This document shows, in pieces, positions 7,635 to 58,979 of a stretch of 64,000 bases of DNA (its first letter is position 1; each line of letters opens with the position of its first letter). Under the pieces are notes generated by a model. It did no database searches, was not told the origin of the DNA, and saw only the letters and a list, made by a program, of their open reading frames with translations. Source of the stretch: Devosia aurantiaca (GTDB lineage Bacteria; Pseudomonadota; Alphaproteobacteria; Rhizobiales; Devosiaceae); assembly GCF_011058215.1 (NCBI RefSeq), contig NZ_JAALFG010000001.1:501001-565000 (forward strand). Reading direction: 5' to 3'. The translations under genes and the position numbers were made by a program.

Positions 7635-8363
7635 ATGATCCTCTTCCCCGCCATCGACCTCAAGGACGGCCAGTGCGTGCGCCTCAAGCTTGGCGACATG
7701 GAGCAGGCTACCGTCTTCAATGACGATCCCGCGGCGCAGGCAAAGAGTTTTGAGGACCAGGGGTTTGAATATCTCCACGTGGTCGACCTCAACGGGGCCT
7801 TTGCCGGCGAGAGCGTCAATGGCGCAGCGGTCGAAGCCATCCTCAAGACTGTAAACTTCCCCGTGCAGCTGGGCGGCGGCATTCGCAATCTTGGCCATAT
7901 CGAAGCTTGGCTCGATCGCGGCTTGGCCCGGGTCATTCTGGGCACCGTGGCGGTGCGCGATCCAGCGCTGGTCAAGGAAGCGGCCCAGAAATGGCCCGGT
8001 CAGGTCGCTGTCGGCATCGATGCCCGCAAAGGCATGGTCGCGGTGGAAGGTTGGGCGGAGACGTCCGAGCTTTCGGTGATCGAGCTCGCCAAGCGCTTCG
8101 AAGGTGCTGGCGTTGCGGCCATCATCTATACCGATATCGATCGCGACGGCATTCTGGCCGGCATCAACTGGGACTCGACGCTCGAGCTGGCGCGCTCGAC
8201 CTCAATCCCGGTGATCGCCTCCGGTGGCCTTGCCTCCATGGCCGACATCGAGCGCTTGACCCAACCCGATGCCGCGGTTCTCGAAGGCGCTATTTCTGGC
8301 CGCGCGCTTTACGACGGCCGCATTGATTCACGTGAAGCATTGGCACGGTTGAGGGCGGCATGA
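7635..8363 (+). CDS. hisA: Phosphoribosylformimino-5-aminoimidazole carboxamide ribotide isomerase
   Basis: TIM-barrel isomerase of histidine synthesis. It starts [17 protein letters not shown] at 7635, with the catalytic Asp in PAIDLKDG and the second in [12 protein letters not shown]. Phosphate-binding glycines are visible in QLGGGIRN and IASGGLAS. 242 residues, normal. Upstream in-frame codons belong to the palindromic repeat and give no family similarity. The stop overlaps the start of the small membrane protein by four bases (ATGA). Confidence 0.97.
8324..8339. promoter_or_regulatory. parS-like site inside hisA
   Basis: TGATTCACGTGAAGCA matches the ParB consensus TGTTTCACGTGAAACA at 14 of 16 positions, with the TTCACGTGAA core intact. 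It lies in the last codons of hisA. See the finding on scattered parS sites. Confidence 0.5.
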
Positions 8364-8674
8364 GCAACGGCCGCTTCCCCTGGAAGGCCTATGTGATCAC
8401 TTTCGTGGTCATCGTGCTGATCGCCGCGGCCCCGCTTTTGTCCGTGATCTTTACCGCATACGTTGCTGAGGCCAATGGCTGCGTCGTCGACGAAGGTTCG
8501 GTCCATTCCTGCATGATCGGGGGCAGCGACTGGGGCGAAACGCTCTATTTCACCGGCATGATGGGCTGGTTCATGCTCGCCACCATCCCCCTTGGCGGCG
8601 GCGCGCTGATCGTCTGGTTCGTCCTGCTTGTGATCCACTATATTGCCTGGCGGCGGAAGGCTTTGATGCCATGA
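8360..8674 (+). CDS. Small membrane protein of unknown function within the histidine operon
   Basis: 104 residues with two hydrophobic segments (about 11-35 and 65-95) and a short loop between them that holds two cysteines (NGCVVDEG and HSCMIGG). The C-terminus is basic (AWRRKALMP), suggesting both ends are cytoplasmic. I recognise no domain. Its start overlaps the hisA stop and its stop overlaps the hisF start, each by four bases, so it is tightly coupled to histidine genes. The two loop cysteines would be placed outside the membrane and could form a disulfide. A role in histidine synthesis is not implied by the sequence. Confidence 0.85.
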
Positions 8675-9477
8675 CCCTCAAGACCCGCATCATTCCCTGC
8701 CTCGACGTTGCTGGCGGCCGCGTGGTCAAGGGCGTCAATTTCGTCGACCTGATCGATGCCGGCGACCCCGTCGAAGCCGCCATGGCCTATGATGCGGCCG
8801 GCGCCGACGAATTGACCTTTTTGGACATCACCGCCAGCCACGAAGGCCGCGACACCATTTTCGACGTCGTGGCGCGCACGGCAGAGCATTGCTTCATGCC
8901 GGTGACGGTCGGCGGTGGGGTCAAGAGCATCGAGGATATCCGCAAGCTTCTTCTGGCGGGCGCCGACAAGGTCGCGATCAACTCGGCCGCCGTCAACGAT
9001 CCGGATTTCATCGCCCGCGCCGCCGACAAGTTCGGCAATCAGTGCATCGTCGTTTCGGTCGACGCCAAGCAGCGGCTGAGCGAGGCGGTTGGCGGCGACA
9101 ACCGGTCGGAGTGGGAGATTTTCACCCATGGCGGCCGCAAGCCGACCGGCATCGACGCGGTGGAATTTGCCGCCCGCATGGTCGAACGCGGCGCCGGGGA
9201 ATTGCTGGTGACCTCGATGGACCGCGACGGCACCAAGTCGGGCTTTGATCTCAAACTCACCCGCGCCATTGCCGATGACGTCGAAGTGCCGGTGATCGCC
9301 TCGGGCGGCGTCGGTACGCTGCAGGATCTGGTGGATGGCGTGACGGAAGGCCATGCCAGCGCTGTGCTGGCGGCCTCGATCTTCCATTTTGGTACCTTCA
9401 CCATCCCGCAGGCAAAACGCTACATGGCCGAGCATGGCATCGCCATGCGCATGGACTTGAGCCCGGAGGTAAAATGA
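8671..9477 (+). CDS. hisF: Imidazole glycerol phosphate synthase, cyclase subunit
   Basis: Closes the imidazole ring using ammonia from HisH, giving imidazole glycerol phosphate and AICAR. 268 residues; TIM barrel opening [21 protein letters not shown], with the catalytic Asp in LDVAGG and the second in the VVSVDAKQ strand. FLDITAS, VGGGVKS and IASGGVGT are the usual phosphate-binding turns. Overlaps the preceding membrane-protein gene and the following hisE, each by ATGA. Confidence 0.98.
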
Positions 9478-9791
9478 CCCTCGAAGAACTCGAACAGCGC
9501 GTGGCGCTGCGCGCCGCTGCCTCGCCGGACGAAAGCTACACCGCAAAGCTCATCGCCCGCGGCATCAACAAGGCAAGCCAGAAGCTGGGCGAAGAGGCGA
9601 CCGAGGCGGTGATCGCGGCCGTCAGCGGCGACCGCGCGGAATTGGTGAAGGAAAGCGCGGATGTGCTCTATCACCTCCTCGTCGTGCTCAAGGCCGCCGG
9701 CGTGCCCCTAAGCGACGTCATGGACGAACTCGATACGCGCACGGCCCAGTCCGGGCTGGCCGAAAAGGCCGCGCGCAAGGATACGCTTTGA
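9474..9791 (+). CDS. hisE: Phosphoribosyl-ATP diphosphatase
   Basis: Hydrolyses phosphoribosyl-ATP to phosphoribosyl-AMP, the second histidine step. 105 residues of all-helical MazG-like fold, with the metal-binding [10 protein letters not shown] and [11 protein letters not shown] motifs. It is a separate HisE, not fused to HisI; no hisI, hisG or hisD is present in this window. It overlaps hisF by four bases and coaA by one, so it is cotranscribed with both. Confidence 0.96.
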
Positions 9792-10741
9792 TGGCGAGGC
9801 GCCCCGCTGTGCTCGACCCCTATCGCAGCTTCACCAAGGCCGAATGGAGCGCGCTGCGCGACGGCACGCCGATGACGCTGACGCAGGCCGATATTGATCG
9901 GCTGCGGTCGCTCTCCGATCCGATCTCCCTTTCGGAAGCCGAAGAGATCTACCTGCCGCTCTCGCGCCTCCTCTCCTATTACGTGGAGGCGACCAAGGGG
10001 CTGCATCTCGTCTCCAACCGCTTCCTTGGCTCGCCCTCCGAAAAGGTGCCCTTCATCATCGGCGTCGCTGGCTCGGTGGCGGTGGGTAAGTCGACTACGG
10101 CGCGAATTCTGCAGGCGCTGCTCAGCCGCTGGCCGTCTAACCCCAAGGTCGATCTCGTCACCACTGACGGCTTCCTCCATCCCAATGCGGTGCTCGAAGA
10201 ACGCGGGCTGATGTCGCGCAAGGGCTTTCCGGAAAGCTACGATCGCGCCCGCTTTGTCGCTTTTCTGGCCGATATCAAGTCCGGCAAGGCGAATGTCGGC
10301 GTCCCGGTCTATTCGCATCTGGTCTATGACGTGGTGCCTGGCGAAGAGATCACCATCGACCGGCCGGACATCCTGATCGTCGAGGGTCTCAACATCCTGC
10401 AGCCGGGCGAATTGCCCAAGACCGGCAATCCGATCCTCTTTGCTTCCGACTTCATCGATTTTTCGATCTATATCGACGCCGACAACGAAGACCTCGAGCG
10501 CTGGTTTCTCGAGCGCTTCTACCGCCTACGTGAAACCGCCTTCCGCGATCCCAACAGCTTCTTTCGCCGCTTCGCCGAAATGAGCGAGGAAGAGGCAGGC
10601 ACTTTCGGGCGCATGGTCTGGCGCGACATCAACCTGCCGAACCTGATCGAAAATGTGCTCCCAACGCGCGGCCGCGCCGATCTTGTGCTCAAGAAGGGCG
10701 GCAATCACCGGGTCGGTGAGGTGAGGCTGAGGCGGTTGTAA
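9791..10741 (+). CDS. coaA: Pantothenate kinase, type I
   Basis: Phosphorylates pantothenate, the first and regulated step of coenzyme A synthesis. 316 residues, with Walker [13 protein letters not shown] near residue 92 and the family segments [26 protein letters not shown] and VEGLNILQ. The ATG at 9791 is preferred to the TTG just before it. It overlaps the hisE stop, continuing the histidine transcript; the hisE-coaA link is common in Hyphomicrobiales. A family A palindrome follows at once. Confidence 0.97.
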
Positions 10742-10742
10742 G

Positions 10743-12776: not shown

Positions 12777-12798
12777 CGGTGATTCACGTGGATCACCG
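12777..12798. terminator. Hairpin between convergent gpmA and AraC-methyltransferase gene
   Basis: Stem CGGTGAT with ATCACCG around TCACGTGG; the loop centre resembles a degenerate parS (13 of 16 over 12780-12795). No T-run follows, so it is a weak terminator candidate. Confidence 0.35.
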
Positions 12799-19718: not shown

Positions 19719-20855
19719 TTAAGCGTCGAACATCTTCTTCAGCTTGTCGAAGAACCCGCCCGAATTCGGGCTGGTCTCTTCCGTCTCCAGCCGCGCAAAT
19801 TCTTCCAGCAGCTCTCGCTGCTTGCGGCTCAGGTTCTGCGGCGTTTCGATGTCGAGCTGCACGTAAAGATCGCCGACATCCTTGCTGCGCAAAACCGGCA
19901 TGCCCTTGCCCTTGAGGCGCACGCGCTGGCCCGGCTGCGTGCCGGCCGGCACCTTGACCTTGGCTCGCGCAGAATCGAGCGTCGGCACTTCGAACTCGCC
20001 ACCAAGCGCAGCCGTGGTCATGGAAATCGGCACGCGGGCATAAAGATCGGCCCCGTCGCGCTGGAACAGCTGGTGCGGCTTGATCGAGACGAAAATATAA
20101 AGGTCGCCAGGCGGTCCGGCACGCAATCCCGCTTCGCCTTCATTGGCGAGACGAATGCGCGTGCCGTCCTCGATACCCTGGGGAATGTCGACCGAAAGCT
20201 TGCGGTTCTGCTGGCGGCGACCCTGGCCACCGCAATCGGTACAAGGCTGGTCCATCATTTCGCCGCGGCCTTGGCAGACCGGGCAGGTGCGTTCGATGGT
20301 AAAGAACCCCTGCGCCGCCCGAACCTTGCCATGGCCATTGCACTGTCGGCAGGTATGGGTGCCGGTGCCCGGCTTTGCGCCAGAACCTTCGCAGGTCTCG
20401 CAGGTAGCCAGCGTCGGCACGTCGATCTCGACGGTTCGACCCTCAAAGCTTTCCTCGAGCGTGACTTCGAGATTGTAGCGCAGGTCCGAGCCACGCGTCT
20501 TGGCCGCACCGCCGCCACGGCGGCCGCCACCAGCCCCGCCCATGAAGTCGCCAAAGATGTCTTCAAAAATGTCCGACATCGAAGATGAGAATTCCGGCCC
20601 GAAACCGCCCGGTCCGCGGCCACCGCCATTTTCGAAGGCGGCGTGCCCGAAGCGGTCATAGGCGGCGCGCTTCTGGCCGTCCTTGAGCGTATCGTAGGCC
20701 TCGTTGATTTCCTTGAACTTGCCTTCCGCCTCGGCATTGCCGGGGTTGCGGTCCGGGTGAAATTGCATCGCGAGCTTGCGATAAGCGCTCTTGAGGGTGG
20801 CCTCGTCGGCGCCTTTCTGGCAGCCGAGCACCTCGTAGAAATCGCGTTTAGCCAA
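19719..20855 (-). CDS. dnaJ: Chaperone DnaJ
   Basis: Hsp40 co-chaperone of DnaK. 378 residues: J domain with [15 protein letters not shown] (HPD), a Gly-rich linker ([13 protein letters not shown]), four CxxCxGxG zinc repeats ([32 protein letters not shown]) and the C-terminal substrate domains. The start codon is an unusual TTG at 20855 with GGAG ten bases upstream; it is the only start that keeps the canonical [10 protein letters not shown]. dnaK lies upstream on the same strand, 341 bases away and with its own terminator. Confidence 0.97.
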
Positions 20856-20998: not shown

Positions 20999-21014
20999 GG
21001 ATTCACGTGAAACT
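20999..21014. promoter_or_regulatory. parS-like site between dnaJ and dnaK
   Basis: GGATTCACGTGAAACT matches the ParB consensus at 13 of 16 positions with the TTCACGTGAA core intact; the right half is nearly complete. Intergenic. Confidence 0.45.
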
Positions 21015-21196: not shown

Positions 21197-23110
<1,914 letters not shown>

Positions 23111-29638: not shown

Positions 29639-30783
29639 CGCCAACGACCTCTTCGGCATCTATGTCCACTGGCCTTTCTGCGCCTCGAAGTGCCCCTATT
29701 GCGATTTCAATTCGCACGTGCATCGCGGCGCCTTCGACGAGGATGCCTTTGTCGAAGGCTATAGGCGCGAGATCGCCCATATGGCCTCACTCTCGCCCGG
29801 CCGGCTGGTGCAGTCGATCTTTTTTGGCGGCGGCACCCGTCGCTGATGTCGCCCAAGGCCGTGGCCGCCATCATCGATGCCGTGGCCGAAGAATGGGAAA
29901 TCGATCGCAAGGCCGAAATCACGCTCGAAGCCAATCCAACCTCTGTGGAGGTTGACCGCTTCCGCGGCTTCCGCACCGCTGGCGTCAATCGTGTTTCCCT
30001 CGGCGTTCAATCGCTGCGGCCCGGTCCGCTCGCCGAGCTCGGCCGGCGCCATACGGTGGAAGAAGCCGTTACCGCCGTGCGCATCGCCCAATCGATCTTT
30101 GACCGCAGCTCTTTTGACCTGATCTACGCCCGTCCGAAGCAAACGCTGGAAGATTGGGAAGACGAGCTCAAGGAAGCCATCTGGATGGCGCGCGGGCATC
30201 TGAGCCTTTATCAGCTCACCATCGAGCAGGGCACGCGCTACTTCGACCTCTTCAATGCCGGCAAGCTGCAGATGCCCAACGAGGATCTGGCCGCCGATTT
30301 CTATGAGCTCACGCAGGAGCTGACCAAGGCGGCCGGCATGCCCGCCTACGAAATCTCCAATCACGCCGTGCCCGGTCAGGAATCGCGCCACAACATGCTT
30401 TATTGGCGCTATGGCGAATATGCCGGCATCGGTCCGGGCGCCCATGGCCGGCTTCTGGTCAACAACCAGCGCCACGCTACCGCCACCGAAAAATGCCCTT
30501 CGACTGGCTCGCCAAGGTCAATGCCAAGGGCCATGGCATGGTCACCGACGACGTGCTCACCTGGGAAGAACAGGGTGACGAATTCCTGGTCATGGGCCTG
30601 CGCATGAAGGAAGGCATTTCTCCAGCCCGCTTCATGTCGATCTCCGGCCGTGGCATTTCCGAGGCCCAAATCGCCGCGCTCAAAGGCTACGGCTTTGTGG
30701 AAACCCTGCCCAATGGCAATATCCGCGTCACGGAAAAGGGCTTTCCGGTGTTGGACGCAGTCGTGGCCGACCTTGCCGCCTGA
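29631..30783 (+). CDS. hemW: Radical SAM family haem chaperone HemW, frame broken twice
   Basis: HemN-like radical SAM protein, now regarded as a haem chaperone rather than a coproporphyrinogen oxidase. The cluster motif is HWPFCASKCPYCDFNSH (CxxxCxxC, about residues 14-26). A C is missing near 29837-29840 (GGGTPSLMSPKAV should read on), and an A near 30487-30492 (ATEKMPFDWLAKV should read on). The C-terminal HemN domain (GDEFLVMGLRMKEGI) follows. Corrected length 384. The start ATG 29631 lies within the rdgB end. Confidence 0.93.
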
Positions 30784-30796: not shown

Positions 30797-31674
30797 GTGA
30801 GCCATGACTACTACATCGCCGGCACGCAATTTTCGGCGCCGGACTTGGCTCCCGGCCTTTACGTCGTTGCGACCCCGATCGGCAATTTGCGCGACATAAC
30901 TATTAGAGCGATCGAAACCCTCGCCGCAGCGGAGGCCGTGCTCTGCGAAGACACGCGTACTTCCGCCAAGCTCCTCGATCACTACGGCATTCGCGTGAAG
31001 CGCGTCGCCTTCCATGAGCACAACGAGCGCGATAAGGCCGAAGACATCGCCAATCGCATCGCCGCCGGGGCTGCGATTGCTCTTATCTCCGATGCCGGCA
31101 CGCCGCTTCTCTCTGATCCGGGCTTCCCGCTTATCCGCACGCTGGCCGAGCAGAACCTGCCCATCTTTCCTATCCCCGGCGCCTCTGCTCTGCTTTCGGC
31201 TCTGGTGGTCGCGGGCCTCCCGACCGACGCCTTCGCTTTCCACGGCTTTCTGCCGCCAAAGCTGGTGCCAGAGCCAATGCTCTGAAAAAATACGCCGTTT
31301 CACGTGAAACACTGGTCTTCTACGAGTCCCCGCGCCGGCTCGCAGATACCCTGACGGCAATGGAAGAGGTTTTGGGCGACCGCCAGGCTGCCGTCTCCCT
31401 CGAACTTACCAAGCGCTTCGAGCGCACCCAACGGGGCAGTCTCGCCGAACTCGCCGCTTTCTTTGCAGAAGACGAAACCAAGGGAGAAGCCGTCATCACC
31501 GTAGCTGGCGCGGCTGAGCCGAGTGCCCCTGCGGCGGAAGACTGGCAAGCAGCGCTAACCGAAGCCATGGCAGATCAGCCTCTTCGCGCAGCCGTAGACG
31601 ACATTGCCGCACGATACGGGCTCAAGCGCAAGGAGGTCTACGATGCCGCACTCACGCTCAAAGACCGCGACTGA
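30797..31674 (+). CDS. rsmI: 16S rRNA (cytidine-1402-2'-O)-methyltransferase, frame broken once
   Basis: Methylates the ribose of C1402 in the decoding centre with SAM. GTG start at 30797 with GGAGG six bases upstream. Signatures: LYVVATPIGNLRDITIRA, LCEDTRTSAKLL, SDAGTPLLSDPG, and PGASALLSALVVAGLP. One G is missing near 31258-31261; the second part reads LVFYESPRRLADTL and LELTKRFERTQRG to the end. Corrected length 292. A near-perfect parS sequence lies inside the gene at 31296-31311, just after the break. Confidence 0.95.
31296..31311. promoter_or_regulatory. Near-perfect parS site inside rsmI
   Basis: CGTTTCACGTGAAACA matches TGTTTCACGTGAAACA at 15 of 16 positions. A 14-base palindrome inside coding sequence (Val-Ser-Arg-Glu codons). 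Confidence 0.7.
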
Positions 31675-32032
31675 GCGCCGACAACAGGCGCATCGATCCG
31701 GCCACCGCGCCGAAGCGCTGGCGGCATGGTATCTCCAGGCCAAGCTCTACAGCATCCGCGCCCGCCGTTACAAAACGCCAGTCGGCGAGATCGACCTGGT
31801 GGCCGAAAAAGCCGGCACTCTCGTCTTTGTCGAGGTGAAACAAAGGACGAAGGGCGGCGAAGAAGCCATGGCACTTGGCGCCGTCAACCAGTCCCGCATC
31901 GTCCGCGCCGCACAATACTGGCTCTCCCGTCATCCCAAAGACGCCGATAAGGACTGCCGCTTCGATGTAATTTTCCTTGCGCCCGGCCGCTGGCCGCGCC
32001 ATCTCAAGCACGCCTTTTCCGTAAGCGAGTAA
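31643..32032 (+). CDS. YraN-family (UPF0102) putative endonuclease
   Basis: 129 residues with a restriction-endonuclease-like fold: [12 protein letters not shown], then [29 protein letters not shown] (key parts GEIDLVA and FVEVKQR), and DCRFDVIFL. The ATG at 31643 has GGAGG six bases upstream, inside the rsmI end, giving a 32-base overlap; an upstream ATG at 31604 lacks a site. rsmI-yraN adjacency is nearly universal in proteobacteria. Nuclease activity is inferred from fold only. Confidence 0.92.
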
Positions 32033-32036
32033 GCTC

Positions 32037-32981
32037 ATGTCGCTCAAAGTCGCCGTCCAGATGGACCATGTCGCCACCATCAATCCGCGCGGCGATTCCA
32101 CTTTCGCCATGATGCTGGAGGCCCAGGCGCGCGGCCATTCGCTGCTTCATTACACGCCGGACACGCTGTCCATGCGCGACAACAAGGTCAGCGCCCTCGT
32201 ACAACCCATCACCGTCACCGATACTGAAAAAGGCCAGCATTTCACCCTGGGCGAGGCACAGCGCATCGACCTTTCGACGCAGGACGTGGTCCTGATGCGC
32301 CAAGACCCGCCCTTCGACATGAACTATATCACGCTCACGCACCTGCTCGAGCGTATCCACCCCAAGACCCTGGTGGTCAACCCACCTGCAGCCGTGCGCA
32401 ATGCGCCGGAAAAATCCTGGTCACCGAATTTCCCGAACTGATGCCGCCCACGCTGGTCACCCGTGATCGCGCTGAAATTCATGCCTTCCGCAAGGAGCAC
32501 GGCAACATCATCGTCAAGCCGCTTTTACGGCAATGGCGGCGCCGGCGTCTTCTTCCTCCAGGAGGGCGACCACAACCTGGCCTCGCTCCTCGAACTGTTC
32601 GAGCAGAATTACCGCGAACCCTTCATGATCCAGAAATACCTGCCCGACGTGCGCAAGGGCGACAAGCGGATCATCATCATCGACGGCGAGCCCATCATGG
32701 GCCTCAACCGCATCCCGGCCGAAGGCGAAGCCCGCTCCAACATGCATGTCGGCGGCCGCCCCGAACTTTCGCCGCTGACCGAGCGCGAGCTCGAAATCTG
32801 CGCCCGCATCGCCCCCGCACTCAAGGAGCGCGACATGATCTTCGTCGGCATCGACGTCATCGGTGGCTATCTCACCGAAATCAACGTCACCTCCCCCACC
32901 GGCATCCGCGAAATCAAACGCTTCGGCGGCCCCGACATCGCCGCTCTGATCTGGGACGCCATCGAAAAGCGGCGTTCATGA
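32037..32981 (+). CDS. gshB: Glutathione synthetase, frame broken twice
   Basis: Joins gamma-glutamylcysteine and glycine with ATP. It begins [39 protein letters not shown] is characteristic. One A is missing near 32409-32415 ([20 protein letters not shown] should read on), and one T is extra near 32522-32526 ([15 protein letters not shown] should read on). The ATP-grasp core continues [20 protein letters not shown] and [19 protein letters not shown] to the stop. Corrected length 314, normal for GshB. The stop overlaps marC by ATGA. Confidence 0.95.
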
Positions 32982-42147: not shown

Positions 42148-43672
42148 ATGGTCACCCGCGTAGCCACGGTAGCGTTTCAGGGTATCGACGCCGTGCCGGT
42201 CGATGTGCAGGCTCATATCGCCCCCGGCTTGCCCGCTTTGGTCATCGTCGGGCTGGGCGACAAGGCCGTGCGCGAAAGCGGCGAGCGCGTCCGCGCGGCG
42301 CTGATCGCCTCGGGTCTCGGTCTGCCCCCAAGCGCATCACCATCAATCTGGCGCCAGCCGACCTGCCCAAGGAAGGCAGTCACTATGACCTGCCGATCGC
42401 CCTCGCGCTGATGAGCGCCATCGGCGCCATTCCGCAAGATGCGCTGGACGGCTATCTGGCCTTAGGCGAGTTGGGCCTTGATGGTCGCCTCGCCCATGTC
42501 GGCGGCATCCTGCCGGCCGCGATTTCCGCTCATGGACGTGGACTGGGCATCGTCTGTCCCAAACTGTCCGGGCCGGAAGCCGCCTGGGCCAGCGAAGACG
42601 TCGACATTATTGCCGCCGACTCCTTCTCGCGCTGGTCAATCACCTGACCGGCCACCAGCTGCAGGGCCGCCCCGTGCCTGGCAAACAGCTGCTGGCCGCA
42701 GGCGATCTGCCTGACCTCATGGATGTGCGTGGCCAGGCCGTGGCCCGGCGGGCGCTGGAAGTCGCCGCTGCCGGTGGCCATAATCTGCTTATGGTCGGCC
42801 CACCCGGTGCCGGTAAAAGCATGCTTGCCGCGCGCCTGCCTTCCATCCTGCCGCCGCTGACGCCACGCGAATTGCTGGATGTATCGATGATCCAGTCCAT
42901 CGCGGGCGAACTTGCCGGCGGAGCCTTGTCCGATCGCCGCCCATTCCGCGCGCCGCATCATTCTGCCTCGATGGCCGCCTTGATCGGTGGCGGTTTAAAG
43001 GTGCGGCCCGGCGAAGCGAGCTTGGCGCATAATGGCGTACTGTTTCTCGATGAGCTGCCGGAATTCCAGCCCAGCGTGCTCGACAGCCTGCGCCAGCCCT
43101 TGGAAAGCGGTGAAACCGTCATTGCGCGCGCCAATGCCCGCGTCTCCTATCCCAGCCGCTTTCAGTTGATTGCGGCGATGAACCCTTGCAAATGCGGCAT
43201 GGCGGGAACGCCGGGCCACACCTGCAAGCGCGGCGCTGCCTGTTCGACAGACTACCAGGCCCGCATATCGGGGCCGTTCCTCGATCGCATCGATATCCGC
43301 ATCGACGTGCCCGCCGTGTCTGCCAGTGACATGATCGTCGCCGGCGCTGCGCCCGAACCGTCCGTTACCGTGGCCAGCCGCGTCGCCGCTGCGCGGGAGC
43401 GTCAACGTCACCGCTACGAAGCTGCCGGTCATCCCGATATCCTCACTAATGCTGCCGCCTCTTCAGCCCTGATCGAGCGCATGGTCGAGCCTGATCGGGA
43501 AAGCCAGAGCCTGCTGCTGCAGGCGGCCGAACGCTTCAACCTTTCTGCCCGCGCCTATCATCGCGTTCTCAAGGTCGCCCGGACCCTGGCCGATCTTGCG
43601 GGCTCCGAAAAAGTCGCGCGCCCCCACATTGCCGAGGCCCTGAGTTATCGCCTCAATTTTGGCTCGGCATGA
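42148..43672 (+). CDS. comM: ComM/YifB-family Mg-chelatase-like AAA+ ATPase, frame broken twice
   Basis: Hexameric helicase-like protein that promotes branch migration during recombination and natural transformation. N-terminal ChlI-type domain: VTRVATVAFQGIDAVPVDVQ and ALVIVGLGDKAVRESGERVRAAL (parts). A C is missing near 42322-42329 (LPPKRITINLAPADLPKEG should read on), another near 42618-42624 (DSLLALVNHLTGH should read on). Walker A is GPPGAGKSMLA, then AAMNPCKCG and the C-terminal helical domain. Corrected length 508. The ATG 42148 has GGGAGG five bases upstream. Its stop overlaps the NUDIX gene. Confidence 0.95.
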
Positions 43673-44821: not shown

Positions 44822-44830
44822 TGTGGATAA
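44822..44830 (-). promoter_or_regulatory. Consensus DnaA box
   Basis: TTATCCACA on the minus strand, an exact DnaA 9-mer, directly next to two parS-like sites in a 50-base gap. A lone box is not an origin. Confidence 0.45.
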
Positions 44831-44831
44831 C

Positions 44832-44847
44832 TGTTTCACGTGAATCC
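44832..44847. promoter_or_regulatory. parS-like site
   Basis: TGTTTCACGTGAATCC, 14 of 16 to the ParB consensus with a perfect left half. Intergenic, beside the DnaA box. Confidence 0.6.
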
Positions 44848-44854: not shown

Positions 44855-44870
44855 TGATTCACGTGAAACC
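44855..44870. promoter_or_regulatory. parS-like site
   Basis: TGATTCACGTGAAACC, 14 of 16 to the consensus. Seven bases from the previous site; it touches the stop of the convergent WYL gene. Confidence 0.6.
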
Positions 44871-46776: not shown

Positions 46777-47820
46777 TTGACCGATGAAAGCTTAAGGCGC
46801 CGGGCCACCGTGCACGATGTTGCGCGAGCCGCGGGCGTATCGCTGGCAACGGTCGACCGGGTGCTCAATGGCCGGCCCGGCGTGCGCGCCGCTACGGCGG
46901 AAAAAGTCGAAGACGCCATAAGCAAGCTCGGCTTTTCGCGCGACCTCAATGCCTCGCTGATGGCGCGGGCTCGCGATCTCCACGTCATCTTCTTCATCCC
47001 CGACGGCTCCAACGAATTCATGGACAGCCTTGCCGCTGCCGTCGACCGCCGCTTCGGCCCAGCCCTCGCCGATCGCATGCATCTTGAAACCCGCCGCATG
47101 CGGGCGCTTGATGCCCTGGCTCTGGCGCAAAACCTCGATGCCCTCGATCCGCGCGCCTGCGACTGCGCAGTGATCGTTGCCAGCGAAGAGCCCGAAATCA
47201 TCGCCGCCGTCGACGCCGCCCATCGCCGCGGCATTGCGGTGATGACCCTGGTATCGGACCTTCCCGGCTCAGCCCGGCGCAATTTCATAGGCATCGACAA
47301 TGTCGCAGCCGGCCGCACCGCAGCCTCCCTTCTCGGTCGCTTCCTGCCGGGTGGCGGCCAGGTCGCGGTCGTCGCCGGCTCGCTTCACCTGCGCGATCAT
47401 GCCGAGCGGCTTGAAGGCTTCAAATCGGCGCTTGCCGCCGAGTTCGAAAGCGTCGAGATCATCGGCCTGGCCGAAGGTCACGACGAGCGCGCCGAAACAG
47501 GCGATATCGTCACCGGCCTCCTCGACCAGCACCCCGATCTTGCCGGCCTCTACAATCTCGGCGCCGGCAATGCCGGCCTCGTCGAAGCGTTGGAGCGCAA
47601 CGGGTGTTCGAGCCATCTTCGCGTCATTGCTCATGAATTGACCGCCCCGACGCGCGCCGGACTCCGCAGTGGCGCCATCGACGTCGTGCTCGACCAAAAC
47701 CCCGACGGCGAAATTCGCGAAGCCATCAGCGCCGCCCGCGCCCTGGCCCTTGGCACCGGCCGCAGCGCTGAAACAAACCCCATTGAAATTGGGATTTTCC
47801 TGCGCGACAATCTCAGGTAA
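46777..47820 (+). CDS. LacI-family transcriptional regulator
   Basis: 347 residues. N-terminal LacI helix-turn-helix TVHDVARAAGVSLATVDRVLNGRPGV, then a periplasmic-binding-like sensor domain (HVIFFIPDGSNEF, DCAVIVASEEPE, FIGIDNVAAGRTAA). The start is a TTG at 46777 with GAGGG seven bases upstream. Placed between the epimerase gene and xylB-xylA, it is the likely xylose-responsive regulator of this module. Confidence 0.9.
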   Translation: MTDESLRRRATVHDVARAAGVSLATVDRVLNGRPGVRAATAEKVEDAISKLGFSRDLNASLMARARDLHVIFFIPDGSNEFMDSLAAAVDRRFGPALADRMHLETRRMRALDALALAQNLDALDPRACDCAVIVASEEPEIIAAVDAAHRRGIAVMTLVSDLPGSARRNFIGIDNVAAGRTAASLLGRFLPGGGQVAVVAGSLHLRDHAERLEGFKSALAAEFESVEIIGLAEGHDERAETGDIVTGLLDQHPDLAGLYNLGAGNAGLVEALERNGCSSHLRVIAHELTAPTRAGLRSGAIDVVLDQNPDGEIREAISAARALALGTGRSAETNPIEIGIFLRDNLR

Positions 47821-47907
47821 GTAAGCGCCATGCGAAAAGCGGCGCGGCCAAAAGGCCGAGGGAGGATGATCGATGTTTGTGATGAAGGTTCTTGAGGTAC
47901 GTGCCTC

Positions 47908-49368
47908 ATGACATTTCTCGGCATTGATATCGGCACGTCCGGCGTCAAGGCGCTGCTGATCGACGACGTCGGTAAGCCCATCGGCGACGCTTCTGCCCCT
48001 GCGGTTGAGCCCGTCCGCCCGCATCCCGGCTGGTCCGAACAGAACCCCCAGGACTGGTGGACCGCCACGCTCGGTGCCATCGACGCGCTCAAGGCCAAGC
48101 ATCCGGCAGAACTCGCTGCCGTCAAGGGCATTGGCCTTTCCGGCCACATGCATGGGGCAACGCTGCTCGGCGACAACGACGAGGTCCTGCGCCCGGCTAT
48201 TTTGTGGAACGACGGCCGCTCCGCCGCCGAATGCCTCGAAATGGAAGCGGCGCTGCCCAACCTGCGCGACCTCGCCGGCAACATCGCCATGCCCGGCTTC
48301 ACCGCACCGAAAATCGCCTGGGTCCGCAAGCACGAGCCCGACATCTACCGCCAACTCAAGAAAGTTCTGCTGCCCAAATCCTATGTGCGGCTTTTGCTGA
48401 GCGGCGAGCATGTGGAAGACATGTCCGACGCTGCCGGCACATTGTGGCTCGATGTGGCGAAGCGCGACTGGTCCGATGAACTGCTCGGTGTCACTGGCCT
48501 TAGCCGCGCCCACATGCCGCGCCTCGTCGAAGGCTCGGCCATTGCCGCCGAGCTCAAGCCCGAACTCGCCGCGCGCTGGGGCATGGGCAAGGTGGTGATT
48601 GCTGGCGGCGCCGGCGACAACGCTGCTGCCGCCTGCGGCATCGGCGCCATCCGCCCCGGCGAAGGTTTCGTGTCGCTCGGCACTTCCGGCGTGCTCTTTG
48701 TTTCCAACGACCGCTTCAGCCCCAATACCGAAGGCGCCGTCCACGCCTTCTGCCACGCTATCCCCGATACCTGGCACCAGATGGGCGTCATCCTCTCGGC
48801 CACCGATTCGCTGAATTGGCTCAGCCGCATCACCGGCAAGAAGCAGGCCGAGCTTTCGGCCGAAGCCGAAGCGCAGTTCAAGGGCCCGGGCGAAACCATC
48901 TTCCTGCCCTACCTTTCCGGCGAACGGACGCCACATAACAATGCTGGCGCGCGCGGCTCCTTCACCGGCCTCAGCCAGTCGACCGAAACCGCGCAGTTGG
49001 CCCAGGCCGTCATGGAAGGCGTAACCTTCGCCATGCGCGATTGCCAGCGTGTGCTCGCCGATGCCGGCACAAGGATCGACCGCCTCCTGGCGGTTGGTGG
49101 CGGGTCGAAATCTGCCCTGTGGCTCAAGATGCTGGCCACCAATCTTGACATGGAGATCGCCCTCCCCGAGGACGGCGATTTTGGCGGTGCGCTGGGCGCG
49201 GCGCGGCTCGGGCTTTGCGCGGCAACCGGCGCCGACCCGGCCGACGTCATGACCATGCCGCCGATAAAGACAACCATTGCGCCCGACCGATCCCTGTCGG
49301 CCGCCTATTCCGATCAATATGCGCGCTACCGCGCACTCTACCCCGCCATCGAGGAGGCACGTTCGTGA
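47908..49368 (+). CDS. xylB: Xylulokinase
   Basis: Phosphorylates D-xylulose for the pentose phosphate pathway. 486 residues of the FGGY family: [20 protein letters not shown], the catalytic Asp region in [17 protein letters not shown] with [14 protein letters not shown], and [16 protein letters not shown]. The C-terminal ATP site shows [18 protein letters not shown] overlap with xylA implies coupled translation. Confidence 0.96.
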
Positions 49369-50672
49369 GCGATTTTTTCAAGGGCCTGGAACAGGTCAAG
49401 TTCGAAGGCACGTCCAGCAAGAATGCGCTGGCCTATCGCCACTACAACAAGGACGAACTGGTCGCCGGCAAGCGCATGGAAGACCATATCCGCCCCGCCA
49501 TCGCCTATTGGCACACGCTGGCGCAGGAAGGCGGCGACCCGTTCGGCGGCCGCACATTCGATCGTCCCTGGTTCGACAAGGGTCTTGAAGGCGCCAAGCT
49601 CAAGGCCGAAGTGGCCTTCGAATTCTTCAACCTCATCGACGTGCCCTTCTTTGCGTTCCACGACGTTGACGTCGCGCCCGAAGGCGAAACGCTGGCCGAG
49701 AGCAACAAGAACCTCCGCGTCATCGGCGACATCATTGCGCAAAAGATGCAGGAAACCGGCAAGAAGCTCCTCTGGGGCACGGCTAACCTCTTTTCCAACC
49801 GCCGCTACATGGCCGGTGCCGCGACCAATCCCGATCCGGCCGTCTTCGCCTATGCCGCCGGCCAGGTGAAGACCGTGCTCGAGCTGACCCATGAACTGGG
49901 CGGCGAAAACTACGTGCTCTGGGGTGGCCGCGAAGGTTACGAAACCCTGCTCAACACCAAGATCGGCCAGGAACAGGACCAGATGGCCCGTTTCCTGACG
50001 CTGGTGATCGAGCATGCCGAAAAGATCGGCTTTACCGGCCAGATCCTGATCGAGCCCAAGCCGCAGGAACCCTCCAAGCACCAGTACGATTTCGACGTCG
50101 CCACCGTTTATGGCTTCCTGCAGAAGTACGGTCTCGAAAAGAAGGTGAAGTGCAATATCGAAGTCGGCCACGCCTTCCTTGCCGGCCATAGCTTCGAGCA
50201 CGAACTCGCCGTCGCCTCGTCGCTCGGCCAGCTCGGCTCGGTCGACGCCAACCGCAACGACCTCCAGTCCGGCTGGGATACCGACCATTTCCCCAACAAT
50301 GCGGGCGAAATGGCGCTGGCCTTCTACTACATTTTGAAGCAAGGCGGCCTCGGCAAGGGCGGCTTCAACTTCGACGCCAAGGTGCGCCGCCAGTCGCTCG
50401 ACCCCGCCGACCTGCTGCATGGCCACATCCTCGGCCTAGACACGCTGGCCCGCGGCCTCAAGGGCGCTGCCGCGCTGATCGAGGACGGCGAATTCGACAA
50501 GCTCCTCGATGACCGCTACGACGGGTGGAATTCCGGCATCGGCGCCGACATCCTGGGCGGCAAGCTCAGCCTCGCCGACATCGCGGCCAAGGTTGAAGCC
50601 GACAACATCAACCCGCAGCCCAAGTCCGGCCGCCAGGAATATCTCGAAAACCTGGTTAATCGGTACGTTTGA
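49365..50672 (+). CDS. xylA: Xylose isomerase
   Basis: Converts D-xylose to D-xylulose with two divalent metals. 435 residues: [10 protein letters not shown] and [13 protein letters not shown] with the catalytic His (about residue 97), [41 protein letters not shown] with metal-binding Glu, and [20 protein letters not shown] start at 49365 with GAGGAGG seven bases upstream, overlapping the xylB stop. Class II length. A palindromic repeat follows. Confidence 0.97.
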
Positions 50673-53498: not shown

Positions 53499-56197
53499 AT
53501 GGACCAGACGCCGATCGATACCGCCCAGCCGCAGGGCCTGACGCCGATGATGGCGCAGTATTTCGAGATCAAGGCGGTCAATCCCGGCTATCTGCTGTTT
53601 TATCGCATGGGCGATTTCTACGAGCTCTTCTTTGAAGACGCTGAGGTCGCGAGCGCTGCTCTCGGCATCGTCCTCACCAAGCGCGGCACGCATCTGGGTC
53701 AGCCGATCGGCATGTGCGGCGTGCCGATCCACGCGGCCAACGACTACCTTAACAAGCTGATCAAACTCGGCCACCGCGTCGCCATCTGCGAGCAGATGGA
53801 AGACCCCGCCGAAGCCAAGAAGCGCGGTTCCAAGTCCGTCGTCAAACGCGACGTCGTCCGGCTGGTCACCCCCGGCACGCTGACCGAGGACGATCATCTC
53901 GACGCGCGATCGTCCAATTACCTTGCAGCGCTCTCCATGGTGCGCCACGGCGAGACCGATTTCGCCCTCGCCTGGGCCGATATTTCTACCGGCGAAACCT
54001 TTGTCGCAGATCTCACTGCCGCCGAGCTTGCCGACGAAATGGCCCGCATCGACCCGGCCGAACTGTTGTTGACCGATGCGACGCGCGCTCTTTTGACCGA
54101 GCGGCATCTTTATCCGCCCGCCTGGTTGCCCATCGCGACGATCATCGAGACGGTGGATAGCGAAGTTGCCATGCCTCTCCTGCGGCAGGCCTTTGCCGCG
54201 GACCTCTTTGATCCGACCTCGCTGTCGCGCGCCAGCCGGGCTGCGCTCGGAGCGCTGGTCGGTTATGTCGGCGAGTCGCAAAAAGGCCGCCGCGCGCCGT
54301 TGCGCCCCCGGTTACAGCGGCGACCGGCACGACGATGGCGATCGATGCGGCAACGCGCTCCTCGCTCGAAATCCTCCAGACCCAGCGCGGTCAATCCAAG
54401 GGCTCGCTGCGCCACGCCATCGACCTGACGGTCACCGCGCCCGGCGCCCGCCTCCTTGCCAGCCGCCTCGCTGCGCCCCTGCGCGACAGCAAGGCCATCA
54501 ATCGCCGGCTCGATGCCGTGGCGCGGCTCGTCGACGATACGCTGCTGCGTGCCCAGCTTCGCGCCGACCTCAAGGCCGCCCCCGACCTTGCACGTGCCCT
54601 TTCCCGGCTGGCGCTGGAACGCGGTGGACCGCGCGATCTCGCCTGTGCCGGGAGGGCGATCGCGGCTGCACTCAATCTGGCTGAGCAACTTGGGCGCCAG
54701 CCGGACTTGCCGGAGAACCTCCAAGAGCTCACCGCGACCCTCGCCGCGGCGCCGCGCGACCTCGCCACCGAGCTTGCCGCAGCGCTCGACGACGACCTCC
54801 CGCTCCTTTCCCGCGATGGCGGCTTCGTCCGCCCGGCCTATGACGGGCGCCTTGACGAAGAACGCGCGCTGGGCTCGGAAACCCGCGCCGTGGTCGCTGC
54901 CCTCCAGGCCCGGCTGATGGACGAAACCGATTTGCGATCGCTCAAGATCAAGCATAACGGCGTCCTCGGTTTTTTCGTCGAAGTGCCCGCCGCCCATGGC
55001 GCCCGGCTCTTGGAAGCCCCCTTCCGCGAAACCTTTATCCGCCGCCAGACGCTTGCCAATTGCATGCGCTTCACCACCACCGAACTGGCCGAGCTCGAAA
55101 CCCGCATCGCCCAGGCCCACGGCGCCGCGCTCGATATTGAAATCGCGATCTTCACCCGCCTGCGCGAAGCGGTCTTGGCGCAAACGCTCGAGTTGCAGGC
55201 CCTCGCCGATGCCCTCGCCGAACTCGACGTCACCGCGGCCCTCGCCGAAGTCTCCGCCACCCGCGCCTATTGCCGCCCCGAGGTCGATGACAGCCTTGCC
55301 TTCGCGATCGAAGGCGGCCGCCACCCCGTGGTCGAGCTCATGGTTAAGACCGAAGGCCAAAGCTTTGTCGCCAACCACGCCGACCTTTCCGGCAGCGACG
55401 CCGAAGGCGGCGGCTCGCTCTGGCTCGTCACCGGCCCAAACATGGGCGGTAAATCCACCTTCCTCCGCCAGAACGCCCTGATCGCCATCCTCGCGCAAAT
55501 GGGCTGCTACGTCCCCGCCGACTCGGCCCATATCGGCGTCGTCGACCGCCTCTTTTCCCGCGTCGGCGCTTCCGACGACATCGCCCATGGCCGCTCGACC
55601 TTCATGGTCGAAATGGTCGAAACCGCCGCCATTCTGAACCGTGCGACTCGTCGCAGCTTGGTTGTGCTTGACGAAATCGGCCGCGGCACCGCGACCTTTG
55701 ACGGCCTCTCCATCGCCTGGGCCGCCGTCGAGGCCTTGCACGAGACCACTGGCTGCCGCGCGCTCTTCGCCACCCACTTCCATGAACTGACCAGTCTCGC
55801 CAAGACGCTGAGCCGGGTTTCCAACGTCACCATGAAAGTGCGCGAATGGGAGGGCGAGGTCGTTTTCCTGCACGAGGTTGGCCCCGGCGCCGCGGATCGC
55901 TCCTATGGCATCCAGGTGGCGCGGCTCGCCGGCCTCCCCGATCCGGTCATCGCCCGCGCCAAACAAGTTCTTGATGTGCTTGAGCAGCGCTCGGTCGGCA
56001 CGGCGTCTTCCAAGGACAAGGCCAGCGTGCTAGACGATCTTCCGCTCTTTGCCCATCGGCCCGCCCCCGCCGAAAAGGCTAAGGACGTTGTTCACGAAGC
56101 GCTGGATACAATCCGGCCGGATGAGATGACCCCGCGTGAGGCCATTGAGGCGCTTTACCACTTGAAGAAAATCCGTGATGACGCTCGCCGAAACTGA
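53499..56197 (+). CDS. mutS: DNA mismatch repair protein MutS, frame broken once
   Basis: Recognises mismatches and loops. 899 residues corrected. Mismatch-binding domain: [19 protein letters not shown] (the FYE motif), connector and lever domains, then the ATPase with Walker [14 protein letters not shown] and [17 protein letters not shown]. One C is missing from a C-run near 54304-54311, where [11 protein letters not shown] should continue into [14 protein letters not shown]. The ATG 53499 is preferred to a TTG just before. The end overlaps glnD by 20 bases. Confidence 0.96.
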
Positions 56198-58979
56198 GGC
56201 ACGGCCCAAAAAGCCGCAGTTCGGGCTTAAGACCGCAGATCAGATCATTGCCGAGCTCGATGCCCTTGTGGGCGAGGGTTCGGCCAGGGACACCTCTGCC
56301 CGCCAGGCCGTCCTCGCTCATTTCCGCGAAACGCTGACCGCGGCGCGTCAGAATGCCGAGGCCGAGCTCTTGGCAACCGGCAAGGGCACCCGCTGCGCGC
56401 AGAACCTTTCCGCCGCGCAGGACGAAATCATCACCGCCATTCATCGCTTTGCGACGACGCGGGTCTATCCGGTGACCAACCCCTCCGGCGCCGAAGCCAT
56501 CGCGCTCTCCGCCGTCGGCGGCTATGGCCGCGGCACCCTCGCGCCGGGCTCCGACATCGATCTCCTCTTCATCCTGCCCTATAAGCAGACGCCCTGGGGC
56601 GAGCAGGTCACCGAATATATCCTCTATATGCTGTGGGACCTTGGCCAGAAGGTTGGCCATGCCGTCCGTTCGGTCGACGAATGCATCCGCATGGCTCGCG
56701 CTGACATGACGGTGCGTACGGCAACGCTTGAAGCTCGCTTCCTCACCGGCGACCGCACGCTCTTCGACCAGCTGGTGCATCGCTTCGAAACCGAGATCAT
56801 GCCCAAGACCGGACCCGAATTCATCGCCGCCAAGATGGCTGAGCGCGATGAACGGCACCGGCAGATGGGCAATACCCGCTATGTGGTCGAGCCCAATATC
56901 AAGGACGGCAAAGGAGGTTTGCGCGACCTCAACACCCTGTTCTGGATCGGCAAATACTTCTACCAGGTCAAAACTTCGCAGGAGCTGGTCGGCAAGGGCG
57001 TGCTCAATCCGGGCGAGTACAAGCTCTTTTCGCGCGCCGAAGACTTTCTCTGGGCCGTGCGCTGCCACCTTCACTACATCACCGGCCGCGCCGACGAAAA
57101 ACTGACCTTCGACGTTCAGCCCGAACTCGCCTCGCGCATGGGCTATGCGCAGCGCCTCGGCATGCTGGGCGTCGAGCGCTTCATGAAGCGCTATTTCCTG
57201 GTCGCCAAGGATGTCGGCGACCTCACCCGCATCATCTGCGCCAGTCTCGAATTCCACCACGCCAAGGACATGGATCTGGTTGGCCGAGTGCTGGCCCCGT
57301 TCCGCTCAGGCAAGAGCAAGATCAAGGGCGAAACCGCCTTCATCGTCGATACCGGAAGGCTCAATCTTGCAACGCCGGACGTCTTCGAGCGCGATCCGGT
57401 CAACATCATCCGCGCCTTCCTGGTCGCCGGACGCGAGGAACTGCTGTTCCATCCCGACGCCATCAAGGTCATCCGGGACTCGCTGCGCCTGATCGACAAT
57501 CACTTGCAGAACGATCCCAAGGCCAACGAGCATTTCCTCGCCATCCTCACGAGCCCTCTCTCGGTCGAGCGCATCCTGCGGCAGATGAACGAGAGCGGCG
57601 TGCTCGGCAAGTTCGTCCCCGATTTCGGCAAGATCGTCGCACTGATGCAGTTCAACATGTACCACCACTATACGGTGGACGAGCATCTGATCCGCTCGGT
57701 GGGCGTCATGGCCGATATCGCCAATGGCGGCATGCGCCAGGAACTGCCGCTGACCCATGAATTGCTGCCACAGCTCAACGATACGCGGCTGCTTTATGTG
57801 GCGCTCTTCCTCCACGACATCGCCAAGGGCCGCCCGGAGGATCACTCCATTGCCGGCGCCCGCATCGCGCGAAAACTCTGTCCGCGCTTTGGCCTCTCCG
57901 CCGCCGAAACCGACACTGTCGCCTGGCTGATCGAATATCACCTGCTGATGTCCGAGATCGCCCAGGCTCGCGATATCCAGGACCCCGAAACCGCCATCGC
58001 TTTTGCCGATGTGGTGCAGTCGCCGCAGCGCCTGGCGCTGCTGATGATCCTCACCGCCTGCGATATTCGCGCCGTCGGTCCCGGCGTCTGGACCGGCTGG
58101 AAGGGCTCGCTGTTGCGTGCCCTCTACTACGCCACCGAGCCATTGCTCTCCGGCGGCCACTCGCAGGTCAGCCAGTCCGATCGCGTGGAGCAGGCACGCC
58201 GGGCGCTCGCCGCCACGCTCACCACCTGGGCGCCGGACGCCATCGAGACCTATATCGCCCGCCACTACGACCATTATTGGTTGCGCGCCGAACCGGAACT
58301 GCAAACCGAGCATGCGCGCCTGATCCGCCAGGCGGACTCGACGGCGCAGGCCTTTGCCGGCTCCATCCGCGTCAAGGCCTTCGAGGGCATTACCGAGGTC
58401 AGCTTCTACGTCCCCGACCATCCACGGCTGCTGTCTCTGATCGCCGGCGCCTGCACCATGCAGGATGCGTCCATCATCGGCGCGCAGATCTTTTCGACCC
58501 GCGACGGCTATGCCATCGACACTTTTCGCCTCCGCCGCTCTTTCACCTCCGATGAAGACGAAAAGGTCCGCGCTACCCGCATTATCGATACGGTCAAGCA
58601 ATTGCTGCAAGGCAAACGCACCGTGCTGATCGACCTCGGCAAGGAATCCCGACACAACCGCCGCCTAAAACCCTTCGCTTTGCCGGCCGAGGTCTCGGTA
58701 TCCAATGCCATCTCGGAAAAGTTCACCGTCATCGAGGTCTCGGGCCTCGACCGGATCGGTCTTCTTTACGCCCTCACGCGCGAAATCTCCGACCTCAGCC
58801 TCACCATCGGCTCCGCCCATATCGGCACCTATGGCGAAAAGGCCGTCGACGTCTTCTACGTCACCGACCTCACCGGCCAGAAGATTCACGTGAAACAGCG
58901 GCAGCGTAAAATCCACGACGCGCTGATGAGCGTCTTCGAAAAGCGTCCGGTAGAGGAGAAGCGGGTGGCGAATGGGTGA
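56178..58979 (+). CDS. glnD: Bifunctional uridylyltransferase/uridylyl-removing enzyme GlnD
   Basis: Senses glutamine and modifies PII proteins, controlling nitrogen assimilation. 933 residues: nucleotidyltransferase domain GGYGRGTLAPGSDIDLLFI (about residues 118-136), central helical region with NIKDGKGGLRDLNTLFW, HD domain FLHDIAKGRPEDHS for removal, and two C-terminal ACT domains (EVSFYVPDHPRLL and VIEVSGLDRIGLL). The ATG 56178 is used; GTG at 56175 is possible. Overlaps mutS, a known alphaproteobacterial pairing. Confidence 0.97.
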   Translation: MTLAETEARPKKPQFGLKTADQIIAELDALVGEGSARDTSARQAVLAHFRETLTAARQNAEAELLATGKGTRCAQNLSAAQDEIITAIHRFATTRVYPVTNPSGAEAIALSAVGGYGRGTLAPGSDIDLLFILPYKQTPWGEQVTEYILYMLWDLGQKVGHAVRSVDECIRMARADMTVRTATLEARFLTGDRTLFDQLVHRFETEIMPKTGPEFIAAKMAERDERHRQMGNTRYVVEPNIKDGKGGLRDLNTLFWIGKYFYQVKTSQELVGKGVLNPGEYKLFSRAEDFLWAVRCHLHYITGRADEKLTFDVQPELASRMGYAQRLGMLGVERFMKRYFLVAKDVGDLTRIICASLEFHHAKDMDLVGRVLAPFRSGKSKIKGETAFIVDTGRLNLATPDVFERDPVNIIRAFLVAGREELLFHPDAIKVIRDSLRLIDNHLQNDPKANEHFLAILTSPLSVERILRQMNESGVLGKFVPDFGKIVALMQFNMYHHYTVDEHLIRSVGVMADIANGGMRQELPLTHELLPQLNDTRLLYVALFLHDIAKGRPEDHSIAGARIARKLCPRFGLSAAETDTVAWLIEYHLLMSEIAQARDIQDPETAIAFADVVQSPQRLALLMILTACDIRAVGPGVWTGWKGSLLRALYYATEPLLSGGHSQVSQSDRVEQARRALAATLTTWAPDAIETYIARHYDHYWLRAEPELQTEHARLIRQADSTAQAFAGSIRVKAFEGITEVSFYVPDHPRLLSLIAGACTMQDASIIGAQIFSTRDGYAIDTFRLRRSFTSDEDEKVRATRIIDTVKQLLQGKRTVLIDLGKESRHNRRLKPFALPAEVSVSNAISEKFTVIEVSGLDRIGLLYALTREISDLSLTIGSAHIGTYGEKAVDVFYVTDLTGQKIHVKQRQRKIHDALMSVFEKRPVEEKRVANG
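58882..58897. promoter_or_regulatory. parS-like site inside glnD
   Basis: AGATTCACGTGAAACA, 14 of 16 to the ParB consensus; perfect right half and intact core. Near the 3' end of the coding region. Confidence 0.5.

What the first reader, a model, noticed from the sequence alone, without database searches (positions are those of the whole stretch)
8324..58897. Six intact TTCACGTGAA cores: a scatter of parS-like ParB sites across the window
The palindrome TTCACGTGAA occurs at 8327, 21002, 31299, 44835, 44858 and 58885, with a degenerate seventh at 12780. At the base composition seen, fewer than 0.1 would be expected by chance in 64 kb. Extended to 16 bases, the six intact-core sites match the ParB consensus at 13 to 15 positions. 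Established knowledge: parS is TGTTTCACGTGAAACA across most bacteria and clusters near oriC. Inference: this is the origin-proximal ParB loading zone, wider than the few-kilobase cluster known in Caulobacter.
Basis: partly seen in the sequence, partly recalled or inferred. Interest (0 to 1): 0.82.

Follow-up and report, generated by a model that had tools for sequence, protein, structure and literature searches.

The report
Devosia centromere sites flanking replication origin
The repeated ten-letter palindrome marks likely ParB-type centromere sites spread over about 100 kilobases beside the probable replication origin of a Devosia bacterium, several at places conserved among its relatives, one of them inside a protein-coding gene.

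Summary
In detail: six TTCACGTGAA cores at the stated places against 0.03 expected, plus one degenerate site. The genome is a Devosia. parB lies 1.2-3.5 kb from four of the five cores left of the window; the motif-defined oriC, the hemE-maf gap, about 2 kb left of it. The array is old: 120 of 120 family genomes carry 2-16 cores; the hisA site is kept in 16 of 16 zones that reach it, with six identical codons, the rsmI and comM-side sites in 12 of 12 Devosia. The seventh site is probably a decayed orthologue. Two features look notable: half-sites are mostly unequal and never A/A (0 of 190 cores; 0 of 120 genomes); and the site at 44832 abuts a DnaA box, kept in 9 of 12 Devosia. Wide parS arrays and DnaA at centromeres are known elsewhere. 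ParB binding was not measured. GC skew places the origin 135-164 kb to the right, an unresolved conflict.

The parts
8324..8339 (+). parS site TGATTCACGTGAAGCA inside hisA (codons GAT TCA CGT GAA GCA)
   Evidence: identical in 16 of 16 family genomes whose fetched zone reaches hisA
12780..12795 (+). degenerate parS relic TGATTCACGTGGATCA beside an ada-like gene; core broken
   Evidence: 9 of 11 other Devosia zones that hold this gene have an intact core 15-166 bases before its aligned start (absent in G004 and G049)
20999..21014 (+). parS site in the dnaJ-dnaK gap
   Evidence: a core in the same gap in the four other Devosia compared, offsets vary
31296..31311 (+). parS site CGTTTCACGTGAAACA in the (frame-split) rsmI gene
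   Evidence: a core at the same part of rsmI in 12 of 12 Devosia zones, in 0 of 3 zones of other genera that reach it
44832..44847 (+). parS site TGTTTCACGTGAATCC, first of a close pair, in the gap between DUF1294 and WYL-domain genes
   Evidence: a T/A core 38-1220 bases beyond comM in 12 of 12 Devosia
44855..44870 (+). parS site TGATTCACGTGAAACC, second of the pair, 23 bp further on
44822..44830 (-). exact DnaA box TTATCCACA immediately before the parS pair
58882..58897 (+). parS site AGATTCACGTGAAACA inside glnD; patchily shared
   Evidence: same codons in G016 and in 1 of 80 fetched glnD loci, L044
7635..8363 (+). hisA, holds the site at 8324
   Evidence: TIGR00007, E 7e-78
19719..20855 (-). 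dnaJ
21197..23110 (-). dnaK
42674..43672 (+). comM-like (YifB family Mg chelatase-like) gene, C-terminal piece; neighbour of the DnaA box-parS element
   Evidence: PF01078, PF13335; G015 orthologue TIGR00368; the name comM is recalled
56178..58979 (+). glnD, holds the site at 58882
   Evidence: NF003467

Best explanation
The palindromes are parS sites of the Devosia chromosomal ParABS system, forming one conserved centromere array around the motif-defined oriC. Shown by sequence: 11 sites confined to 103 kb; a tight cluster at parAB-gidB-mnmG on one side of the hemE-maf gap and a ladder of sites 10-61 kb on the other side; conservation of many of them at orthologous places. Inferred from the characterised system: ParB dimers load at each site, bind CTP, slide off as clamps onto neighbouring DNA, form a condensed origin complex that ParA moves first, and recruit SMC there. 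The many spaced sites would give a broad ParB-coated and SMC-loading region instead of a few-kilobase one. Unequal half-sites are probably weaker than symmetric ones, so the strongest nucleation would stay near parAB, where nearly all symmetric sites are.
For: 11 of 11 cores in 2.8% of the assembly. parB beside the cluster; the gene next to it in G015 is a ParA-type ATPase, followed by gidB and mnmG. In the ten other Devosia whose full site list I saw on one contig, all or all but one core lie within 54-109 kb: 12/12, 13/13, 13/13, 14/14, 10/10, 12/12, 12/12, 13/14, 10/11, 12/13; the three outliers lack a GTTTC half. Site places are orthologous, several to the base, with a similar map relative to hemE across 18 genomes. 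The longest run of identical codons in hisA is the parS. 18 of 18 ParB readable in the zones have R173 and G201, which contact parS and are reported as conserved in ParB (PMC7383237 passages). Best solved relative is Caulobacter ParB (6t1f/7bm8, E 3.6e-75). An SMC gene is present, frame-split. T/T sites: 27 left of hemE, 1 right.
Against: No binding data. The ParB of G015 scores higher on the Noc model (219.8 bits, below its cut-off of 315) than on parB_part (186.7, above its cut-off of 58.45). In Corynebacterium, sequences with at least three mismatches did not recruit ParB (passage of PMC7083940), so the 3-mismatch site at 20999 could be weak and that at 12780 is probably dead. GC skew places the origin 135-164 kb right of the motif origin, which would put the whole array on one arm.
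Confidence: 0.94

Rival explanations
1. Operators of a CACGTG-binding transcription factor that happen to cluster.
For: The core contains CACGTG, and several sites are intergenic.
Against: Sites lie inside hisA, rsmI and glnD as well as in gaps; 11 of 11 are in one 103-kb arc with parB; the genes beside them have no evident common function.
Confidence: 0.02
2. Only the tight left cluster outside the window works as the centromere; the ladder in the window is a neutral remnant.
For: Ladder sites are mostly unequal half-sites and turn over: the ada-side site has decayed here and is missing from G004 and G049, the site before rph is missing here, the glnD site was found only in G016 and L044, and the rsmI site is absent from 3 of 3 zones of other genera. 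One parS suffices in C. glutamicum (PMC7083940 passage).
Against: hisA keeps six codons in 16 of 16 family genomes; the rsmI and comM-side sites are kept in 12 of 12 Devosia.
Confidence: 0.15
3. The true origin lies 135-164 kb right of hemE, towards dnaA, and the whole parS array sits on one arm, roughly 80-180 kb away.
For: Cumulative GC-skew minimum at +140, +135 and +164 kb from hemE in three genomes; polar 8-mers (GGGNAGGG) lean the same way most clearly in G016; a weak residue remains after allowing for gene strand. dnaA lies 22-38 kb beyond the minimum. C. glutamicum has its parS cluster 73 kb from oriC.
Against: The hemE-maf gap holds the strongest DnaA-box cluster of 288-305 kb in all three genomes (scores 10, 13, 9; next best 5, 6, 6) and TTAA-N7-TTAA CtrA-like boxes, which also occur at three or four other places in each. 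An origin beside hemE fits known alphaproteobacteria (recalled).
Confidence: 0.25

Closest known systems
Caulobacter crescentus parS cluster and ParB
   Same: parS about 8 kb from the origin; one half of the site better kept than the other; DnaA also acts at the centromere (passages of PMC5815017 and PMC6399470). Closest solved ParB.
   Different: There the five strongest sites lie within 5 kb; here cores span 54-109 kb. The DnaA box here is at a ladder site 41-57 kb from hemE.
Bacillus subtilis parS sites
   Same: Dispersed strong sites 5, 13 and 39 kb apart (passage of PMC5815017).
   Different: Here in an alphaproteobacterium, with many sites kept slot by slot among relatives; I did not compare slots between Bacillus species.
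Corynebacterium glutamicum parS1-10
   Same: Ten sites in one 35-kb region, one of them in a coding sequence (passage of PMC7083940).
   Different: That array is more compact and lies 73 kb from oriC; here half-sites are mostly unequal.
Streptomyces, Listeria and Myxococcus multi-parS arrays
   Same: 20 or more sites near the origin (PMC7333895 passage; start of the abstract of PMC3899335).
   Different: Half-site make-up and gene slots were not compared here.

Membership tests
parS of chromosomal ParABS | 16-bp near-palindrome close to TGTTTCACGTGAAACA | tested here: met
   six sites with 1-3 mismatches and intact core
parS of chromosomal ParABS | confined to one zone of the chromosome, near the origin | tested here: met
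   11 of 11 cores in 103 kb; zone spans the motif origin, though not the skew minimum
parS of chromosomal ParABS | parB in the same genome, near the sites | tested here: met
   TIGR00180 at C1:490370-490875, frame-split
parS of chromosomal ParABS | cognate ParB has parS-type, not Noc-type, contact residues (R173, G201) | tested here: met
   18 of 18 ParB HTH regions; residue meaning from passages of PMC7383237
parS of chromosomal ParABS | bound by ParB in cells | not testable with these tools
   no ChIP data
parS of chromosomal ParABS | sequence kept by selection | tested here: met
   orthologous sites, several base-exact; hisA codons
Noc binding sites (NBS) | C instead of A at position 6 of the half-site, and a Noc-type protein (Q173, R201) | tested here: not met
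   cores read TTCACGTGAA; ParB is R173/G201; Noc model below its cut-off
alphaproteobacterial oriC at hemE (recalled) | DnaA-box cluster with CtrA boxes next to hemE | tested here: met
   3 of 3 genomes
alphaproteobacterial oriC at hemE (recalled) | GC-skew switch at the same place | tested here: not met
   minimum at +140, +135, +164 kb

The most novel reading that the evidence does not exclude
Devosia has a two-part centromere: a strong cluster at parAB and, across oriC, a ladder of deliberately unequal parS sites with a composite DnaA box-parS element 41-57 kb out. DnaA bound there would link replication state to ParB loading far along the ladder, a replication-segregation checkpoint at a distance from the origin. 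The half-site rule (never A/A) and the mostly one-way orientation right of hemE would tune or direct loading.
Probability: 0.2. Interest if true: 0.7.

Novelty: new member of a known kind. Interest (0 to 1): 0.48.

Why it matters
Why parS numbers and clustering vary so much between bacteria is posed as an open question in PMC7333895 (passage). This family gives a slot-by-slot map: a site kept family-wide that fixed codons and an amino-acid motif in hisA, sites kept genus-wide (rsmI, comM side), patchy ones (ada side, glnD) and one that has decayed. That makes centromere gain and loss testable by comparison. The DnaA box-parS element is a concrete place to test replication-segregation crosstalk.

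Tried and rejected
Residue 184: 18 of 18 family ParBs have K or R there, and Noc's lysine at that place contacts the phosphate of thymine 2, the base that varies in these sites (PMC7383237 passage). I expected K/R184 to explain the tolerance. Two relatives from other families (G040, G026) have K184 yet only T/T sites in their parB-bearing piece; a third (G037) has T184 and T/T sites: 7 of 7 T/T. The four further cores of these three genomes, elsewhere, are not symmetric parS; one (G026 C123) has a full GTTTCAC half. Rejected as sufficient cause.

Half-site rule: my note said that at least one GTTTCAC half is present in 189 of 190. That was wrong: it tested position 2 only. A full GTTTCAC half is present in 165 of 190; 25 lack it, mostly the GATTCAC/GCTTCAC type. 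What holds is that A/A is absent.

Corrected.

Gene names: the anchor called 'maf' in my scripts is aroE. The gene that follows the gap is Maf by Pfam, so the gap's name stands.

Orientation: right of hemE 66 cores have the A half on the left and 12 on the right; left of hemE 26 and 47 (G013b and G113 not counted, no hemE in the piece). Orthologous sites inflate this. By slots I count by hand about 9 to 1 on the right, noticed after the fact; suggestive only.

oriC by GC skew in the window alone gave no sign change that marks an origin. The DnaA box at 44822 first suggested oriC there; hemE-maf is far stronger.

Literature: no paper in the library holds 'parS sites', 'ParB' and 'Devosia' together. 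Livny 2007 is not held; its survey is known only through citing papers. Mera 2014 was seen only through the review PMC6399470 (passages).
Full report
WHAT WAS CHECKED. The 16-mers have 1-3 mismatches to TGTTTCACGTGAAACA, and a broken seventh starts at 12780.

WHOSE GENOME. GlnD from the window is 85-87% identical to several Devosia records. So the genus handle g1 is Devosia; family f1 I take as Devosiaceae (name recalled). The assembly is noisy: parB, dnaA and smc are each split, so split genes in the window are probably sequencing errors.

WHERE THE SITES LIE. parB is at C1:490370-490875, hemE at 497596-498597. From the hemE start this genome has cores at -41.8, -6.6, -6.3, -4.3, -4.2, +10.7, +23.4, +33.7, +47.2, +47.2 and +61.3 kb. 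The left cluster is in gidB and just upstream of mnmG; the window holds the right-hand ladder: hisA, the dnaJ-dnaK gap, rsmI, the gap after comM/DUF1294 (a pair), and glnD.

IT IS A FAMILY TRAIT. In one search all 120 family genomes of at least 90% completeness have the core: 68 Devosia (own included) with 4-16, median 12, and 52 others with 2-11, median 8 (tally). Of 16 genomes from 16 other families of the order, 15 have 1-5 and one has 9. In the ten other Devosia whose full list I saw on one contig, all or all but one core sit in 54-109 kb; in other genomes seen, lists were cut or sites lay on several contigs (G009, G013, G048). Nine cores outside the fetched zones were read: one (G118, 50 kb from its nearest neighbour) looks like parS, eight do not.

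SLOTS ARE ORTHOLOGOUS. Flank mapping from this genome into four other Devosia predicts the two gidB cores within 7 bases, the first mnmG-upstream core within 3, hisA within 1 and rsmI exactly; G021 has one mnmG site where the others have two. A core lies in the dnaJ-dnaK gap in all five, with shifts. By gene, the rsmI core is present in 12 of 12 Devosia zones and 0 of 3 zones of other genera; a T/A core lies 38-1220 bases beyond comM in 12 of 12 Devosia; hisA holds it in 16 of 16 family zones that reach the gene. The -42 kb core aligns exactly with cores of G001 and G002; the complete lists of G010, G013, G015 and G021 have none there. The degenerate seventh site stands where 9 of 11 other Devosia have an intact core beside the ada-like gene, at offsets that vary by up to about 150 bases, so orthology there is probable rather than exact. 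A core upstream of rph in three of four other Devosia is absent here. The glnD core is shared with G016 and L044, and absent from 79 other fetched glnD loci. So the array gains and loses sites within its zone.

SELECTION ON DNA. In hisA the codons ATT GAT TCA CGT GAA GCA are identical in 16 of 16 family genomes; the script picked genomes by the site, but no zone reaching hisA lacked it. Only 21 of 157 amino-acid-invariant columns (M and W left out) are codon-invariant, and this is the longest run in the gene. In 14 other-family HisA read at this place none has the core, and 11 of 14 have Pro where the family has Ser (15 loci examined, one without the motif; a sixteenth genome had no hisA). The centromere site seems to have fixed both codons and amino acids.

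HALF-SITES. Of 190 zone cores from 18 genomes, position 2 of the two halves is A/T in 137, T/T in 29, A/C in 22, C/C in 1 and C/T in 1; A/A in none, where about 33 would be expected if halves were independent. The full A/A palindrome GATTCACGTGAATC is absent from all 120 family genomes, which hold 1,191 cores. Related sites are not independent, so the 33 is only a guide. A full GTTTCAC half is present in 165 of 190; in the 136 of these with one such half only, the other half is GATTCAC in 135. In three other-family relatives the sites in the parB-bearing pieces are T/T, 7 of 7. Caulobacter parS also keep one half better (passage of PMC5815017).

A COMPOSITE ELEMENT. The site at 44832 is preceded by an exact DnaA box at 44822-44830. 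Among 12 Devosia with this T/A site, 9 have GTGGATAA starting within 25 bases before the core; G021 has a one-base variant, G016 and G004 none. In 1,459,000 bases of zone, 14 TGTG[G/C]ATAA boxes occur and 10 are within 45 bases of a parS core, all at this one site, at offsets -13 and -25, in six genomes; such neighbourhoods make up 1.3% of the sequence. The other genera examined do not show it. DnaA acting at the Caulobacter centromere is described in PMC6399470 (passages).

THE ORIGIN. The hemE-maf gap (Maf by Pfam) has the top DnaA-box cluster in 305, 293 and 288 kb of three genomes and TTAA-N7-TTAA boxes 113-197 bases from the hemE start, a motif also found at a few other places; blocks of the gap are conserved. 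That puts oriC near C1:498.6-499.1 kb, about 2 kb left of the window. But the cumulative GC-skew minimum is at +140, +135 and +164 kb, 22-38 kb short of dnaA, and the residue after allowing for gene strand still leans that way. I could not resolve this.

MECHANISM. Recognition is expected to be ordinary: 18 of 18 ParB have R173 and G201, the parS contacts of PMC7383237 (passages). Loading, CTP-dependent sliding, ParA-driven movement and SMC recruitment are taken from the known system (PMC7333895 passages; abstract starts of PMC7053999 and PMC8367383) and not shown here. If Devosia ParB spreads only about 2 kb per site, as Caulobacter's does in E. coli (PMC5815017 passage), ladder sites mostly 5-20 kb apart would make separate ParB islands rather than one continuous coat.

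VERDICT. A real and well-conserved parS array, correctly read by the first stage. It is a member of a known kind. What is worth a specialist's time is the slot map, the absence of A/A sites, and the DnaA box-parS element.

Noticed in passing
window 44822-44847: Exact DnaA box directly before a parS site; in five other Devosia a second TGTG[G/C]ATAA-type box lies at offset -25.
   Followed up: partly
G000 C1 about 638.8 kb; G010 C1 about 3475 kb; G016 C1 about 39 kb: GC-skew minimum lies 135-164 kb from the motif-defined oriC in three Devosia genomes.
   Followed up: partly
window 30797-32981, 29846-30607, 54335-56197, 59359-60384; C1 parB, dnaA, smc: Many genes, core ones included, are split or truncated: the assembly probably carries frequent frameshift errors.
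   Followed up: no
window 8324-8339: Family HisA reads IDSREA where 11 of 14 HisA of other families of the order read [I/L]DPxxA; the change coincides with the parS site.
   Followed up: yes
L173, L174, L175: Isolated cores far from the zone in G016, G004 and G049 lack a GTTTC half and look like chance matches.
   Followed up: yes
L126:13571-14485: This ParB scores higher on NCBI's Noc model than on parB_part, though below the Noc cut-off.
   Followed up: partly
window 46861-50672: Sugar catabolism genes: periplasmic binding protein, FGGY kinase, xylose isomerase-like TIM barrel.
   Followed up: no
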